Program-made: the position numbers and the translations under genes
In this document: positions 16,818 through 27,729 of the stretch, piece by piece
Numbering within the stretch: the stretch's first letter is position 1
Layout of the letters: each line of letters begins with the position of its first letter
The notes under the pieces: model-generated
Told to the model about the DNA's origin: nothing
The model's database searches: none
The model's input: only the letters and a program-made list of their open reading frames with translations
IMG/VR virus record: IMGVR_UViG_3300014819_000002
Span: 73,175-103,126 of that record
Direction: 5' to 3' (one strand)
DNA from: a virus
Length of the DNA: 29,952 bases

Positions 16818-17801
16818 TCAAAGATTTAATGCACGATGGTAATCTGCTTCATACATCATATGAGCTAAATCATGAAATGTTGTCTTTGGTTTCCATCCTA
16901 ATACTCTTTGTGCCTTAGAACTATCCCCAAGTAATATTGGAACCTCATGTGGGCGATATAATCTTGGATCAATCTTTACATGTTTGCTAACATCTAAACC
17001 AGCATGTTCAAAGACAACTTGTAGAAACTCACTTACTGTATGTGTTTCTCCGGTAGAAATAACATAATCATCGCCTTTTGGCTGCTGCAACATTAACCAC
17101 ATAGCCTCTACGTAATCTCCAGCAAATCCCCAATCTCTTTTTGCATCAAGATTTCCAAGATACAATGTTTCTTGTTTGCCCAACTTTATATTAGCCGCAG
17201 CAAGAGTAATCTTGCGGGTAACAAACGTCTCTCCTCTTACTGGACTTTCATGGTTAAACAATATGCCAGATGATATATGAAGCCCGTAGCCCTCACGGTA
17301 GTTACGGCAAAGATTGTGAGCATATAGTTTGGCACAGGCATAAGGAGAAGCTGGTGTCATGCGTGTCTCTTCATTTTGAGGAACGTTAACATTGTCTCCA
17401 TACATTTCTGAGGATGATGCCTGATAGAAACGTGCTTGTGGACAGATTAGCCTATAAGCCTCTAGAAGTTTCAGAGTGCCTCCACCTACTACGTCTAGGG
17501 TTTCCTCTGGAACTTCAAATGAAACCCTTACATGGCTTTGTGCGGCGAGGTTATATATCTCGTCGGGCTTATACTTGGTAAGAAGAGAATATATAGAACT
17601 TGAATCGGTCATATTGCCATATTCAAGCTTGAAGTTTGGATGACTGAAAATTGCAACATCATCTAATCTGTCTGTTGTTATAAGAGAAGTTCTTCTCTTC
17701 ATTCCTGTAACACGATAACCTTTATCAAGTAATAACTTTGCTAAATAAGAACCATCCTGACCTGTTACGCCAGTTATAAACGCAGTCTTTTGTGTTGACA
17801 T
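16818..17801 (-). CDS. gmd: GDP-mannose 4,6-dehydratase
   Basis: The 327-residue short-chain dehydrogenase/reductase converts GDP-mannose to GDP-4-keto-6-deoxymannose. Evidence: the NADP-binding [11 protein letters not shown] (residues 11-20), SSSEMYG (129-135, with the catalytic-type Ser and Glu132), YACAK (Y154-x3-K158) and [16 protein letters not shown] in the GDP-mannose pocket, all typical of Gmd. It is near the usual length (about 345). The ATG overlaps the stop of the fucose synthase gene by one base (TAATG) with GAGG 7 nt before it. The two together make GDP-L-fucose. Known in several T4-like cyanophages; inferred role here is sugar for host or virion glycan. Confidence 0.95.
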
Positions 17802-18772
17802 TATAATCCTCTTACATTCGGATATGCTATTTTAAACCAATCACAGGTCTTCTTTAAAGCAATATCAAATGGAGTATAATCTTCTAGACGCCAACTTGTT
17901 TTTTCTAATAATCTTTTATTGGAAGATGGTTTTCTAAACTGACCAGATGGTTTTTCAGTATTAAAAACTAATTTGCCATCGTATTCAAGATATTCAACTA
18001 GTTTCTTTGCTACAGAAGCTATTGAATGTTCTTCTGTATTTCCGATATTGAGAGGCTGATCATCATCGTATTCTTCCGACACTTTGAGCAATATTCGAGC
18101 TATATCGCCGGTATATGTGAACTCTCTTAGTGGGCTACCATCTCCCCATATTTCTACAGCAGGAATGTGGTTTAGTTTGGCTTCCCATATTTTTCTCATA
18201 AGAGCTGGGATAACGTGCCCATCTTCTAAATGGAAGTTATCATGTTCGCCAAATAGATTATTTGGAATAACGTTAATGTAATTGACCCCATGCTGCTTAC
18301 GATATGCTCTCGTCTGCACGTCCAGCATCCTTTTAGCATAAGCATAACCAAAGTTACTATCATGTGGTGGTCCGAGGTGTAACTGGTCTTCTGTGAGCGG
18401 ATAGGAGACGTATGGAGCATCTGGATAGACACAGGTAGATAATACAGAAACCACTTTCGGTATGTTGTAACTTACACAGGATTCCAGCAAATTTGTGTTA
18501 ATAACTGTATTGTCATGAAAGAAGGTTGCCAATTTATCGCTATTTGCTTTGATTCCGCCTACTTTAGCTGCAAGATGAAAAACGCAAGATATCTTACTAT
18601 ATAAGCCTTGCCCATCTATAGCTTCAAAATCTCTTAAGAAATTATTAACATCATCTTTGTGCAATAAATTCAATATTGAACTAGTTGGAGCTATGTAATC
18701 GATATTACGCTTTTCAATATCGAATACGAGCGCCTTGCCCAACATTCCATGTGCTCCGGTAATCAATATCAT
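17801..18772 (-). CDS. fcl: GDP-L-fucose synthase (epimerase/reductase)
   Basis: The 323-residue SDR enzyme performs the 3,5-epimerisation and NADPH reduction that follow the dehydratase. Visible motifs: TGAHGMLG (5-12), [10 protein letters not shown] (68-77), STCVYP (S112-P117, with the catalytic Cys114), GYAYAKR (Y143-x3-K147) and [18 protein letters not shown], diagnostic of Fcl. [12 protein letters not shown] is also present. The sequence has the family length. The N-terminal ATG at 18772 has no strong Shine-Dalgarno. The adjacency with gmd is the usual operon order in reverse: here fcl is upstream of gmd. Confidence 0.95.
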
Positions 18773-25294: not shown

Positions 25295-25897
25295 TTATTT
25301 CATTTGAGTATGACGGACGCCAAACTTTGCATTCATTTGAAATTCACAGAGATTACGAGCATTAGAATAAGAGAAGGAACTCTGCAATCCTCCCTTGATT
25401 TGATTTATAATATCAATTGCGCTATGTTCACTTGCGTCAATCAATGTTGAAACTCCTTCTGCTGTTGGTAGCGAAGAAGCATTACGAATGGTTAGCATTG
25501 CATCCTTGCTTGCCATACCACGATAAACCTTCTTACCGCCAACACGCTCACCAGGAGCTTCTCGTGCACCGGCAAACAATCGTCCACACATGACAAGATC
25601 AGCACCAGCAGCAAGAGCCTTGGCAATATCACCAATCTCAGTAATACCACCATCAGCTACAATAAGAGGTTTATTGCCATACATACCATGTAAAACACTA
25701 GCACATTCCATTACGGCACTGAACTGAGGAACAGTAACTCCAGTAACATTCTTTGTACTGCAAGCTGAATTATGAACGACAATACCACTCACATTGTAAG
25801 AGTGGTCATCTTCAACTTCTAAATCATAGGCAATCCCGCCTGGGTTGTTTGTGTTTTCAATTGTTTGAATTTCAACTAACTTGAACTTTGATAGCAT
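25295..25897 (-). CDS. C-terminal half of fractured IMP dehydrogenase/GMP reductase, with split intein C-part
   Basis: The 200-residue protein has two parts. Residues 1-43 are the C-part of a split intein (AYDLEVEDDHSYNVSG, then IVVHN), ending in the His-Asn of the splice junction. Residues 44-200 begin SACSTKNVTGV, the substrate loop with the catalytic Cys (C46, codon 25760-25762), then VMECASVLHG, ADGGITEIGDIAKAL, AGADLVMCG and YRGMASKDAM. These are typical of the IMPDH/GMP reductase family. The ATG has AGAGG 6-7 nt upstream, inside the end of the endonuclease gene (26-nt overlap). Trans-splicing with the N-half is needed for the full barrel. Note K in place of the usual Arg in C-[ST]-T-R. 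Confidence 0.93.
   Translation of the reverse strand: MLSKFKLVEIQTIENTNNPGGIAYDLEVEDDHSYNVSGIVVHNSACSTKNVTGVTVPQFSAVMECASVLHGMYGNKPLIVADGGITEIGDIAKALAAGADLVMCGRLFAGAREAPGERVGGKKVYRGMASKDAMLTIRNASSLPTAEGVSTLIDASEHSAIDIINQIKGGLQSSFSYSNARNLCEFQMNAKFGVRHTQMK
25769..25897 (-). other. Split intein, C-terminal fragment (43 residues)
   Basis: The fragment encodes residues 1-43 of the C-half. Block F/G features are seen: DLEVEDDHSYN, then GIVVHN with the penultimate His and terminal Asn, and Ser as the first C-extein residue (TCA at 25766-25768). The Asn-to-Ser junction and the fragment's length (roughly 40 residues) fit naturally split inteins of the IMPDH-1 type. Confidence 0.93.
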
Positions 25898-26825
25898 TTA
25901 AAACCTCTTTAATGACTTTTTCTTTACTATTTTTTATATCAGATTCCCAAAAAAATATATACTTAAAACCGTTTTTTTCTGCCCATTGTTTTTTAACTAA
26001 ATCTCGAGATATCTTTTTAATTTGAGTTTTATTCAATGATTGAGGACTGTAATAAGCTGGATTTCCATGCCAATAATCTCCATGAACTTCAAAAAGAATT
26101 TTACCCTGCTTGTATCCAAAATCAAATTGCATAAAATTTAAAATAACTGAATAAGTCACCTCGATATCATTTGCTTTCAATAAATCATAAAATTCTTTTT
26201 CAATCCGGTTCATTTTATATTTTGATTGTGATAAGACAGATATTTTTCCGGCTTTTGATTTATTTTGTCTATAATATTTCGGATTTTCATTCAATAATTT
26301 TTTTTGAGCTTTGGAAAGCTTTTCTGAAATAATATTCTTTTCTAAATCACTTAGCTGCTGATTGTATCTTTTTATGCCAAAAGACATTTTTTCTTTACTT
26401 TCCTTTGAATGTGATTTGTTCAAGAAAGGATTGTCATTGTTTAAACTCCAATTTTTTATTTTTTTAGATATTAATTGTTTTGTTTCTTCAGAATGTCGTT
26501 TGCCATAAAAAGGATTATTTTTACCTATATATTTAAGTTTCATTTTTTTTGAATGAATGCGTTTTGTTTCTTCAGAATGTCGTTTGCCATAAAAAGGATT
26601 ATTTTTGTCTTTTTTATTACACGACTGACATATATATAGTTTTTTATTTAAAGAACTGCGCCAGGATATCTTTTTTAAAGCTTTGCACGTACAACATTCA
26701 ATGCTAATCTCACCTAATTTAGTAACTTGAATCAAGATACCGTTTTCTAATATCGCAAAAGTATTTTTTCCTTGCTTATTAAACTGTATTACCTTTTGAT
26801 CTTCTTTCCATATATTATTTATCAT
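25872..26825 (-). CDS. Free-standing homing endonuclease, Vsr-like (EDxHD-type) with NUMOD3 repeats
   Basis: The 317-residue protein lies between the two halves of the split enzyme gene. A possible zinc knuckle (C44/C47 and C66/C69) is followed by NUMOD3 motifs, NNPFYGKRHSEETK at 75-88 and again at 103-116, and a looser DNPFLNKSHSKESK at 132-145. A nuclease domain lies at the C-terminus: E209/E211, FDF (D235), EVHGDYWHGNP (246-256) and ISRDLVKKQW (D275). The last resembles the Vsr-type very-short-patch fold, the EDxHD group known from fractured genes. The first frame codon is TTG at 26849, but ATG at 26825 has GGAG 5 nt before it. Likely role: site-specific cleavage for spread of the split element. 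Confidence 0.85.
   Translation of the reverse strand: MINNIWKEDQKVIQFNKQGKNTFAILENGILIQVTKLGEISIECCTCKALKKISWRSSLNKKLYICQSCNKKDKNNPFYGKRHSEETKRIHSKKMKLKYIGKNNPFYGKRHSEETKQLISKKIKNWSLNNDNPFLNKSHSKESKEKMSFGIKRYNQQLSDLEKNIISEKLSKAQKKLLNENPKYYRQNKSKAGKISVLSQSKYKMNRIEKEFYDLLKANDIEVTYSVILNFMQFDFGYKQGKILFEVHGDYWHGNPAYYSPQSLNKTQIKKISRDLVKKQWAEKNGFKYIFFWESDIKNSKEKVIKEVLNAIKVQVS
26477..26606. repeat. 46-bp exact direct repeat, 84-bp period, in the NUMOD3 region
   Basis: Copies at 26477-26522 and 26561-26606 are identical over 46 bp and 84 bp (28 codons) apart, so the frame is kept. They encode the two identical NUMOD3 motifs. The identity at silent positions suggests a recent in-frame duplication or gene conversion, not selection on protein alone. 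Confidence 0.9.
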
Positions 26826-26874
26826 GTTGACTCCGATGTCATTATGCAAATAAATATGATATAGGACTTGTATT

Positions 26875-27729
26875 TTAAATTTCCAAAAGAAGATAATCTT
26901 TTGTTAGTTTTTCTGCTTCAATCCATTCTGCAAGAAGGTGAATGTTATCATCATTAGCTATATCTACTTTTGATTTATGTAACACATAATATTCATGATT
27001 AGGTGTAGATTTAATGCCATTTATTTCAGTAAACTGCTCTTTATTCCTGTGAACAAATGTATTTGTCACTTTTCTCAGACGACCTTTGTGAGTCCATACT
27101 TCTTCTCCAATATTAATTTGATCAATCGGCTTTAAACCTTCAGATGTTTTCACAAGAGTATCTTTAGAAAAACATCCGGGACCAATGCCAACCTTAATAG
27201 CATGAGCACCCCATGAAGCAAGATCCTTGACAGCTTGAGCAGTAGCTACATTTCCTGCCATAACATAAACATCAGAATATGTGTCACGAAGCCATGTAGT
27301 CATATCACGCATCATTCGTGAGTGACCATGTGCGATATCAATAACGAAGTTCCGAGCGCCAGCATTATATAGTCTACGAGCCCGTTCTTTACTTTCTTCA
27401 TTTACTCCAATAGAAACAAAACAAGGATATGACTTTTGATAATGAATATCACCAGTTCCAATCTGAAACTCACGGATATTCTGTTCAACCGTCATGAAAC
27501 GATGAATAGCTCCGATAGCACCACCTTCTGCCATAGCATAAGCCATTTCACCAGCGGTGACGGTATCCATATTAGCGGAAATGACAGGAACATCAATCTT
27601 GAAATCTCCGATATGAACACTTGTATCTACTTGAGAACGGGAAGTTACTTCACTATATTGAGGAACTAGATATACGTCCTTATAATCAAGGGCTCCAATA
27701 TCTACTGTTGGTCGATAAAAATTATTCAT
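26875..27729 (-). CDS. N-terminal half of fractured IMP dehydrogenase/GMP reductase, with split intein N-part
   Basis: The 284-residue protein has an extein of residues 1-185 and an intein fragment of 186-284. The extein shows the TIM-barrel start (DYKDVYLVPQYSEVTSRSQ), PVISANMDTVT, FVIDIAHGHS and MAGNVAT, and stops at KVGIGPG, exactly where the family has its catalytic loop. The start is taken at ATG 27729 because AGAGG lies 6 nt upstream; the frame is open for another 23 codons to 27798. There are no CBS domains. After splicing, the enzyme would be 342 residues, near GMP reductase length. Known family activities: IMP to XMP, or GMP to IMP. Which applies here is uncertain. Confidence 0.93.
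   Translation of the reverse strand: MNNFYRPTVDIGALDYKDVYLVPQYSEVTSRSQVDTSVHIGDFKIDVPVISANMDTVTAGEMAYAMAEGGAIGAIHRFMTVEQNIREFQIGTGDIHYQKSYPCFVSIGVNEESKERARRLYNAGARNFVIDIAHGHSRMMRDMTTWLRDTYSDVYVMAGNVATAQAVKDLASWGAHAIKVGIGPGCFSKDTLVKTSEGLKPIDQINIGEEVWTHKGRLRKVTNTFVHRNKEQFTEINGIKSTPNHEYYVLHKSKVDIANDDNIHLLAEWIEAEKLTKDYLLLEI
26878..27174 (-). other. Split intein, N-terminal fragment (99 residues)
   Basis: The fragment starts with Cys (TGT at 27172-27174) in CFSKDTLVKT (block A), then GLKPIDQINIGEEVWTHKG and block B STPNHEYYVL (T-x2-H). It ends with the stop at 26875 after LTKDYLLLEI. Block order, fragment length and the N-x-x-H arrangement match the N-parts of natural split inteins in IMP dehydrogenase genes. 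It contains no endonuclease domain. Confidence 0.93.

What the first reader, a model, noticed from the sequence alone, without database searches (positions are those of the whole stretch)
25295..27729. Fractured IMP dehydrogenase/GMP reductase gene: trans-spliced by a split intein with the homing endonuclease gene in between
The N-half ends GIGPG then Cys of a split intein; the C-half starts with the matching intein C-part ending His-Asn then Ser. Both halves have their own start and Shine-Dalgarno, and a separate endonuclease gene fills the gap. This is the fractured-gene arrangement first described for marine metagenomic IMPDH (Dassa et al. 2009). Here it is embedded in a phage genome with a glycan cassette. 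The two-gene, one-enzyme logic needs all three parts.
Basis: partly seen in the sequence, partly recalled or inferred. Interest (0 to 1): 0.95.

Follow-up and report, generated by a model that had tools for sequence, protein, structure and literature searches.

The report
Phage enzyme gene fractured by intein
A bacterial virus carries a purine-metabolism enzyme cut into two separate genes that are probably stitched back together as protein by a self-removing 'split intein', with a DNA-cutting gene sitting in the break; it is a good new example of an arrangement already known from environmental DNA.

Summary
On the minus strand lie an IMPDH/GMP-reductase-family N-half fused to a class-1 split-intein N-part (26875-27729), a 317-aa Vsr/EDxHD-type homing endonuclease with NUMOD3 repeats (25872-26825), and the intein C-part fused to the enzyme C-half (25295-25897). 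Two scans of viral contigs gave 48 representative intein-bearing alleles in this active-site loop (39 split, 9 contiguous), so this is a new member of the known 'fractured gene' kind. Refinements: (1) the endonuclease frame overlaps the C-half start codon in 26 of 26 split representatives with a near-full endonuclease ORF, and in 8 of 13 without one its tail still does; (2) the window's nearest kin have Asn at +1, where splicing needs Ser/Thr/Cys, and the window's Ser sits in a short, apparently co-converted flank; (3) the IMPDH flap segment is missing, so 'IMPDH' is unproven and GMP reductase as likely. Splicing and cleavage are inferred, not shown.

The parts
27175..27729 (-). N-extein: residues 1-185 of the IMPDH/GMP-reductase-family enzyme, ending GIGPG
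26875..27174 (-). split-intein N-part, 99 residues, Cys1 first, TxxH (T57, H60) of block B, then stop
   Evidence: Cys1, T57 and H60 invariant in 12 of 12 rows; profile matches gp41-1 intein 6qaz, E 3.1e-6
25872..26825 (-). free-standing homing endonuclease, 317 aa from ATG 26825 (an upstream TTG at 26849 would give 325 aa): three NUMOD3 repeats and a C-terminal Vsr/EDxHD-type nuclease domain
25872..25897 (-). 26-nt out-of-frame overlap: the endonuclease tail holds the Shine-Dalgarno-like stretch and start codon of the C-half
25769..25897 (-). split-intein C-part, 43 residues from its own ATG, ending His-Asn
25295..25768 (-). C-extein: residues 186-342, starting Ser(+1)-Ala-Cys (catalytic Cys at +3)
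25757..25768 (-). codons +1 to +4 of the C-extein (TCA GCT TGC AGT), which differ from five intein-free kin at +1, +2 and +4: probable co-conversion tract

Best explanation
A homing split-intein element has recently entered this phage's IMPDH/GMP-reductase gene at the active-site loop. The gene is now two genes. Each half is translated from its own start; the intein N- and C-parts associate, splice in trans by the class-1 route (Cys1, Asn at the intein end, Ser +1) and leave a 342-residue enzyme. The Vsr/EDxHD-type endonuclease in the break cuts intein-free alleles and the break is repaired from the fractured copy, which spreads intein, endonuclease and a few flanking codons, including the Ser that splicing needs. 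Shown here from sequence: the parts, catalytic residues, exact empty site, nesting among empty alleles, conserved overlap of nuclease tail and C-half start. Inferred: splicing, cleavage, homing, enzyme activity.
For: Parts and frames. Empty site: 58 of 58 viral rows read in one frame across the junction (59 loci L002-L060, L058 starts past the junction; L002 and L004 are one contig). The window nests inside the intein-free clade, sister L004 (99/98 protein, 97/99 DNA). Neighbouring genes are the same in the kin. The same element family in 39 split and 9 contiguous representatives at this loop. Intein N-part profile matches gp41-1 intein in the PDB. The endonuclease model's best PDB match is I-Bth0305I catalytic domain 3r3p (E 4.0e-4, probability 1.00), then Vsr 1cw0. 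GC: exteins 0.41 and 0.42, intein N-part 0.30, endonuclease 0.26, intein C-part 0.36. Flank co-conversion: of 242 columns uniform in five kin only 5 differ in the window, two of them +1 and +2 (about 3e-4 by hand if placed at random).
Against: No activity data. No other member of the window's own clade carries the intein in the scans made, and the donor is unsampled: nearest intein N-part is 56-58% identical. A search of PDB with the joined intein alone found nothing; Hint_2 is under its cut-off. Model confidence of the endonuclease is moderate (mean pLDDT 77.6, pTM 0.40, 9 sequences). Promoter-like sites are not more than in shuffles (17 against 13.4, sd 4.3), so transcription of the C-half is not explained.
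Confidence: 0.92

Rival explanations
1. The gene is fractured but the halves work as a non-covalent complex or not at all; the intein parts no longer splice (a decaying element).
For: Splicing was not tested; some alleles in the survey are damaged (L084 has a stop at codon 5 of its intein; L168 has a broken endonuclease).
Against: In the window Cys1, TxxH, His-Asn and Ser +1 are intact; both frames are open and both exteins stay 84% and 92% identical to L004; the fragments end in intein sequence that would obstruct an active-site loop if left in place (inference).
Confidence: 0.05
2. Assembly artefact: two phage alleles or a chimeric contig.
For: Single metagenomic record without end repeats; the insert differs in GC from its flanks.
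Against: The same three-part order recurs in many contigs from different metagenomes with different sequences; neighbouring genes on both sides match the same kin; only one IMPDH-family gene in the record.
Confidence: 0.02
3. The endonuclease is an unrelated free-standing nuclease that landed in an already split intein and does not drive its spread.
For: 13 of 39 split representatives lack a near-full endonuclease ORF. L088 has an intein 88-91% identical to L065, L089 and L102 but an endonuclease only 39% identical to theirs, so nucleases can be exchanged in the gap.
Against: All 26 near-full endonucleases match one profile and overlap the C-half start; distances of exteins, inteins and endonucleases in nine alleles are correlated (Mantel r 0.70-0.89, 2 to 14 of 2000 permutations as high).
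Confidence: 0.12

Closest known systems
Fractured genes with split inteins (Dassa et al. 2009; paper not held, known here by recall and citations)
   Same: enzyme gene broken in two, intein halves on the broken ends, separate Vsr-type endonuclease gene between them; mainly phage
   Different: host phage, glycan-cassette setting, a documented empty-allele clade with Asn at +1, and enzyme type not settled
IMPDH-1 split intein (Carvajal-Vallejos et al. 2012; not held; review passages)
   Same: host family, Cys1 and Ser +1 (Table 3 of PMC11766414), similar split sizes
   Different: IntN 99 and IntC 43 here against 106 and 42 in that table; sequences not compared, because no copy of IMPDH-1 came from any call
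EDxHD homing endonuclease I-Bth0305I (3r3p)
   Same: catalytic-domain fold; E209, D235, H253, D275 invariant in 9 of 9 relatives, which fits the motif name (the assignment is my inference)
   Different: three NUMOD3 repeats and about 40% identity only to other fractured-gene nucleases; lies in an intein break; PMC3943268 passages list it among group I intron endonucleases
gp41-1 split intein (6qaz)
   Same: best PDB match of the intein N-part profile (E 3.1e-6)
   Different: other host gene; only the first 60 or so residues align
GuaB/GMP reductase of Microcystis phage Mel-JY01
   Same: PD-(D/E)XK nuclease gene on one side and glycosyltransferase genes on the other
   Different: single 1098-nt CDS, by its size without an intein

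Membership tests
fractured gene (Dassa type; definition recalled) | conserved enzyme coding region broken in two, both parts present | tested here: met
   Pfam IMPDH 1-180 and 178-332 in the two ORFs
fractured gene (Dassa type; definition recalled) | matching split-intein parts on the broken ends | tested here: met
fractured gene (Dassa type; definition recalled) | free-standing endonuclease gene between the halves | tested here: met
fractured gene (Dassa type; definition recalled) | trans-splicing of the halves | not testable with these tools
   needs co-expression
class 1 split intein | Cys/Ser at position 1, TxxH in block B, His-Asn at the end, Ser/Thr/Cys at +1 | tested here: met
   C1, T57, H60 in A2; HN|S
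EDxHD/Vsr-like homing endonuclease | Vsr-like catalytic fold related to I-Bth0305I | tested here: met
   Foldseek 3r3p E 4.0e-4, 1cw0 E 7.8e-4; NCBIfam vsr 19.9 bits, below its cut-off of 97.85
EDxHD/Vsr-like homing endonuclease | cuts intein-free alleles at the insertion site | not testable with these tools
   empty-site sequences given can be used as substrate
IMP dehydrogenase | NCBIfam IMP_dehydrog over its cut-off | tested here: not met
   244.8 against 481.5 bits for the joined extein, though it is the best of the models
IMP dehydrogenase | flap with the Arg-Tyr segment (recalled as the IMPDH hallmark) | tested here: not met
   the segment around DRY of 1vrd is a gap in the window's protein
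GMP reductase | NCBIfam GMP-reductase model over its cut-off | tested here: not met
   best GMP-reductase scores 212.7 of 675 and 211.2 of 344 bits; activity not testable

The most novel reading that the evidence does not exclude
Phages escape this intein by changing the +1 residue of the target. Intein-free alleles in the window's clade have Asn or Ala where splicing needs Ser/Thr/Cys, so an insert there would be lethal to the enzyme; the element that entered the window's phage beat this defence by converting the first codons of the C-extein and bringing its own Ser. Of 20 non-redundant intein-free alleles 14 lack Ser (9 Ala, 5 Asn), of 15 intein-bearing alleles none does. Against it: only 3 well-supported independent pairs exist and the sign test is not significant, the loci were not sampled at random, and the junction search itself asked for Ser or Cys in the larger survey.
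Probability: 0.15. Interest if true: 0.65.

Novelty: new member of a known kind. Interest (0 to 1): 0.42.

Why it matters
The arrangement is known, but this locus and its relatives give what is usually missing: exact empty alleles of 84-92% extein identity, an almost matched pair of fractured and contiguous alleles (L110 and L112, exteins 91% and 96% identical, intein N-part 93%), and alleles that lost the nuclease but kept its tail over the C-half start. That makes the birth, spread and decay of split inteins testable with real phage alleles, supplies new natural split inteins for protein engineering, and suggests that the nuclease protects itself from clean deletion by carrying the ribosome-binding site of the C-half.

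Tried and rejected
Close-relative scans of viral contigs with the endonuclease alone and the intein N-part alone found no relative; the pattern scan across the N-junction and the intein alignment scan found them. Isolate phages: 37 records matched the N-half and none covered 80% of it; the endonuclease matched 9 records, none over 80%; the L112 intein matched 12 records, all under 60% identity, none annotated as IMPDH. So no close isolate relative was found in that collection by these searches. Promoter and terminator scan: not above shuffles for promoters; 2 terminator-like sites on the plus strand only, against a mean of 1.0.

Rows dropped before the count: L151 and L171-L179 (ten loci; L173 is IMPDH-like with an intein two residues further on, the rest truncated or in other genes). 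Of 100 loci, 63 representatives remained: 39 split, 9 contiguous, 15 without a readable C-junction or not IMPDH (nine chance matches, one intein-free IMPDH L082, five cut off: L080, L084, L091, L093, L100). Representatives are cut at 95% identity of the intein N-part and are not independent events. In one search the C-junction of L162 was misread; one search corrects it (GTG start, overlap 20 nt, +1 Ser).

Full report
What is there. The window is the last 29,952 bases of a 103,126-base viral record. On its minus strand, in order of transcription, lie the N-half (27729-26875), the endonuclease gene (26825-25872) and the C-half (25897-25295), in three different frames. The N-half is 185 residues of an IMPDH/GMP-reductase-family barrel ending GIGPG, followed by 99 residues of intein starting with Cys. 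The C-half is 43 residues of intein ending His-Asn, followed by SACSTK and the rest of the barrel. Pfam covers the family profile at 1-180 and 178-332 across the two halves. The insertion is in the catalytic loop, two residues before the conserved Cys (alignments; the catalytic role is recalled).

The intein. Cys1, T57 and H60 are invariant in 12 of 12 aligned N-parts; intein_Cterm passes its cut-off in the C-half; the profile of N-parts matches the gp41-1 intein in the PDB (6qaz, E 3.1e-6). A single-sequence PDB search with the joined intein found nothing, and Hint_2 scores 26.9 against a cut-off of 28.4.

The endonuclease. Three NUMOD3 repeats and a weak vsr match below cut-off. An AlphaFold2 model from nine homologues (mean pLDDT 77.6, pTM 0.40) has as best PDB match the catalytic domain of I-Bth0305I (3r3p, E 4.0e-4), followed by Vsr (1cw0, E 7.8e-4). 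Passages of PMC3943268 name I-Bth0305I as the EDxHD family's example.

Empty alleles. Relatives found with the C-half, plus one found with the N-half, give 59 loci; 58 rows could be read across the junction and all 58 are in one frame without insert (L002 and L004 are one contig). The nearest, L004, is 84% (N) and 92% (C) identical and is the window's sister with support 99/98 in a protein tree and 97/99 in a DNA tree; the other close kin share the neighbouring genes. So the insert is younger than the split between the window and L004, unless it was lost cleanly several times.

The +1 residue. The window's five closest kin rows used for comparison all have Asn at +1 and Val at +2; the window has Ser and Ala, and Ser for Thr or Ile at +4, while codons +5 to +9 are again nearly identical. 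Over 332 columns only five of 242 kin-uniform positions differ in the window: 6, 186 (+1), 187 (+2), 306 and 336. This is what co-conversion of about 12 nt of flank would leave. Among 20 non-redundant intein-free alleles +1 is Ala 9, Ser 6, Asn 5; among 15 intein-bearing ones Ser 15; among all 58 intein-free rows Ser 36, Ala 15, Asn 7. The tree needs at least 7 changes of intein presence. The independent-pairs test has only 3 supported pairs and is not significant.

A wider survey. A DNA pattern for KVGIGxG|C and an alignment of intein N-parts were used on viral contigs. After dropping ten loci, 100 loci reduce to 63 representatives: 39 split, 9 contiguous, 15 others. Seven contiguous ones are mini-inteins (138-152 residues) and two are long (374 and 381; LAGLIDADG type by eye). 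With the corrected L162 +1 is Ser in 44 and Cys in 4 of the 48; the junction search asked for such residues, but no IMPDH-family locus with a readable C-junction was rejected. L156 and L169 carry the intein two residues further on, with the catalytic Cys as +1. The element is therefore not rare in viral contigs.

The overlap. In 26 of 26 split representatives with an endonuclease ORF of at least 250 codons, this ORF runs 4-50 nt past the C-half start codon in another frame (25, L162). Of the 13 without, 8 keep a short frame (34-111 codons) that matches the end of the endonuclease profile and overlaps the start (L156 only at E 0.01); L141 keeps a tail broken by a stop; L135 shows by eye a frameshifted remnant; L087 and L142 show none; L168 has a broken endonuclease without overlap. 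All could descend from one fracture, so this is a shared trait rather than 26 events; but the survival of the tail after loss of the rest, as in L081 against L065, fits selection for the start region it contains. I recall that Dassa et al. mention control elements brought in with the endonuclease, so the idea is not wholly new.

Parts can be exchanged. L088's intein is 88-91% identical to those of L065, L089 and L102, yet its endonuclease is only 39% identical to theirs. L110 (fractured) and L112 (contiguous) have exteins 91% and 96% identical and intein N-parts 93% identical, so break or repair happens between close relatives; direction is not shown.

The enzyme. The joined extein scores best with IMP_dehydrog, 244.8 bits, but no IMPDH or GMP-reductase model reaches its cut-off. 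It has no CBS domains and no flap segment corresponding to 1vrd's SADRYG. I call it IMPDH/GMP-reductase family. The cassette downstream holds a GDP-mannose 4,6-dehydratase, a related epimerase, two glycosyltransferases and FkbM-type methyltransferases, and Microcystis phage Mel-JY01 has GuaB beside glycosyltransferase genes: a role in guanine-nucleotide supply for GDP-sugars is a guess.

Literature. Dassa et al. 2009 and Carvajal-Vallejos et al. 2012 are not held; I rely on recall and on passages of PMC11766414 and PMC7090010. Full-text searches for IMP dehydrogenase + split intein + phage, and inteins + phage genomes + GMP reductase, returned no paper; split inteins + IMPDH + metagenom + endonuclease returned four, seen as a listing. 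The library holds only part of the literature, so this does not show that phage cases are unpublished.

Verdict. Real, well explained, a new member of a known kind. Interest 0.42, for the allele series and the +1 and overlap observations rather than for the arrangement itself.

Noticed in passing
window 16818-18772: GDP-mannose 4,6-dehydratase and a neighbouring epimerase in a phage glycan cassette with two glycosyltransferases and two FkbM methyltransferases.
   Followed up: partly
L061:446-1984 and L061:5906-7363 (same coordinates in G000): Two further large homing-endonuclease-like ORFs (PHROG 3339) in the same phage record, one with a NUMOD3 repeat.
   Followed up: no
L063:15674-16771 (G000 54674-55771): One 366-aa ORF matches an HNH endonuclease family at its start and a head-closure family at its end: a fusion, intein or misread start.
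   Followed up: no
L062:4022-5749: The phage record encodes a GroEL-type chaperonin (PHROG 5725, E 2e-138).
   Followed up: no
L156, L169, L173: Inteins inserted two residues further on, directly before the catalytic Cys: a second insertion site in the same loop (L173 seen only).
   Followed up: partly
L084 near its contig end: IMPDH-family gene whose intein has a stop at its fifth codon: decayed intein or sequence error.
   Followed up: no
L088 against L065, L089, L102: Nearly identical split inteins with a different endonuclease in the gap: nuclease exchange.
   Followed up: partly
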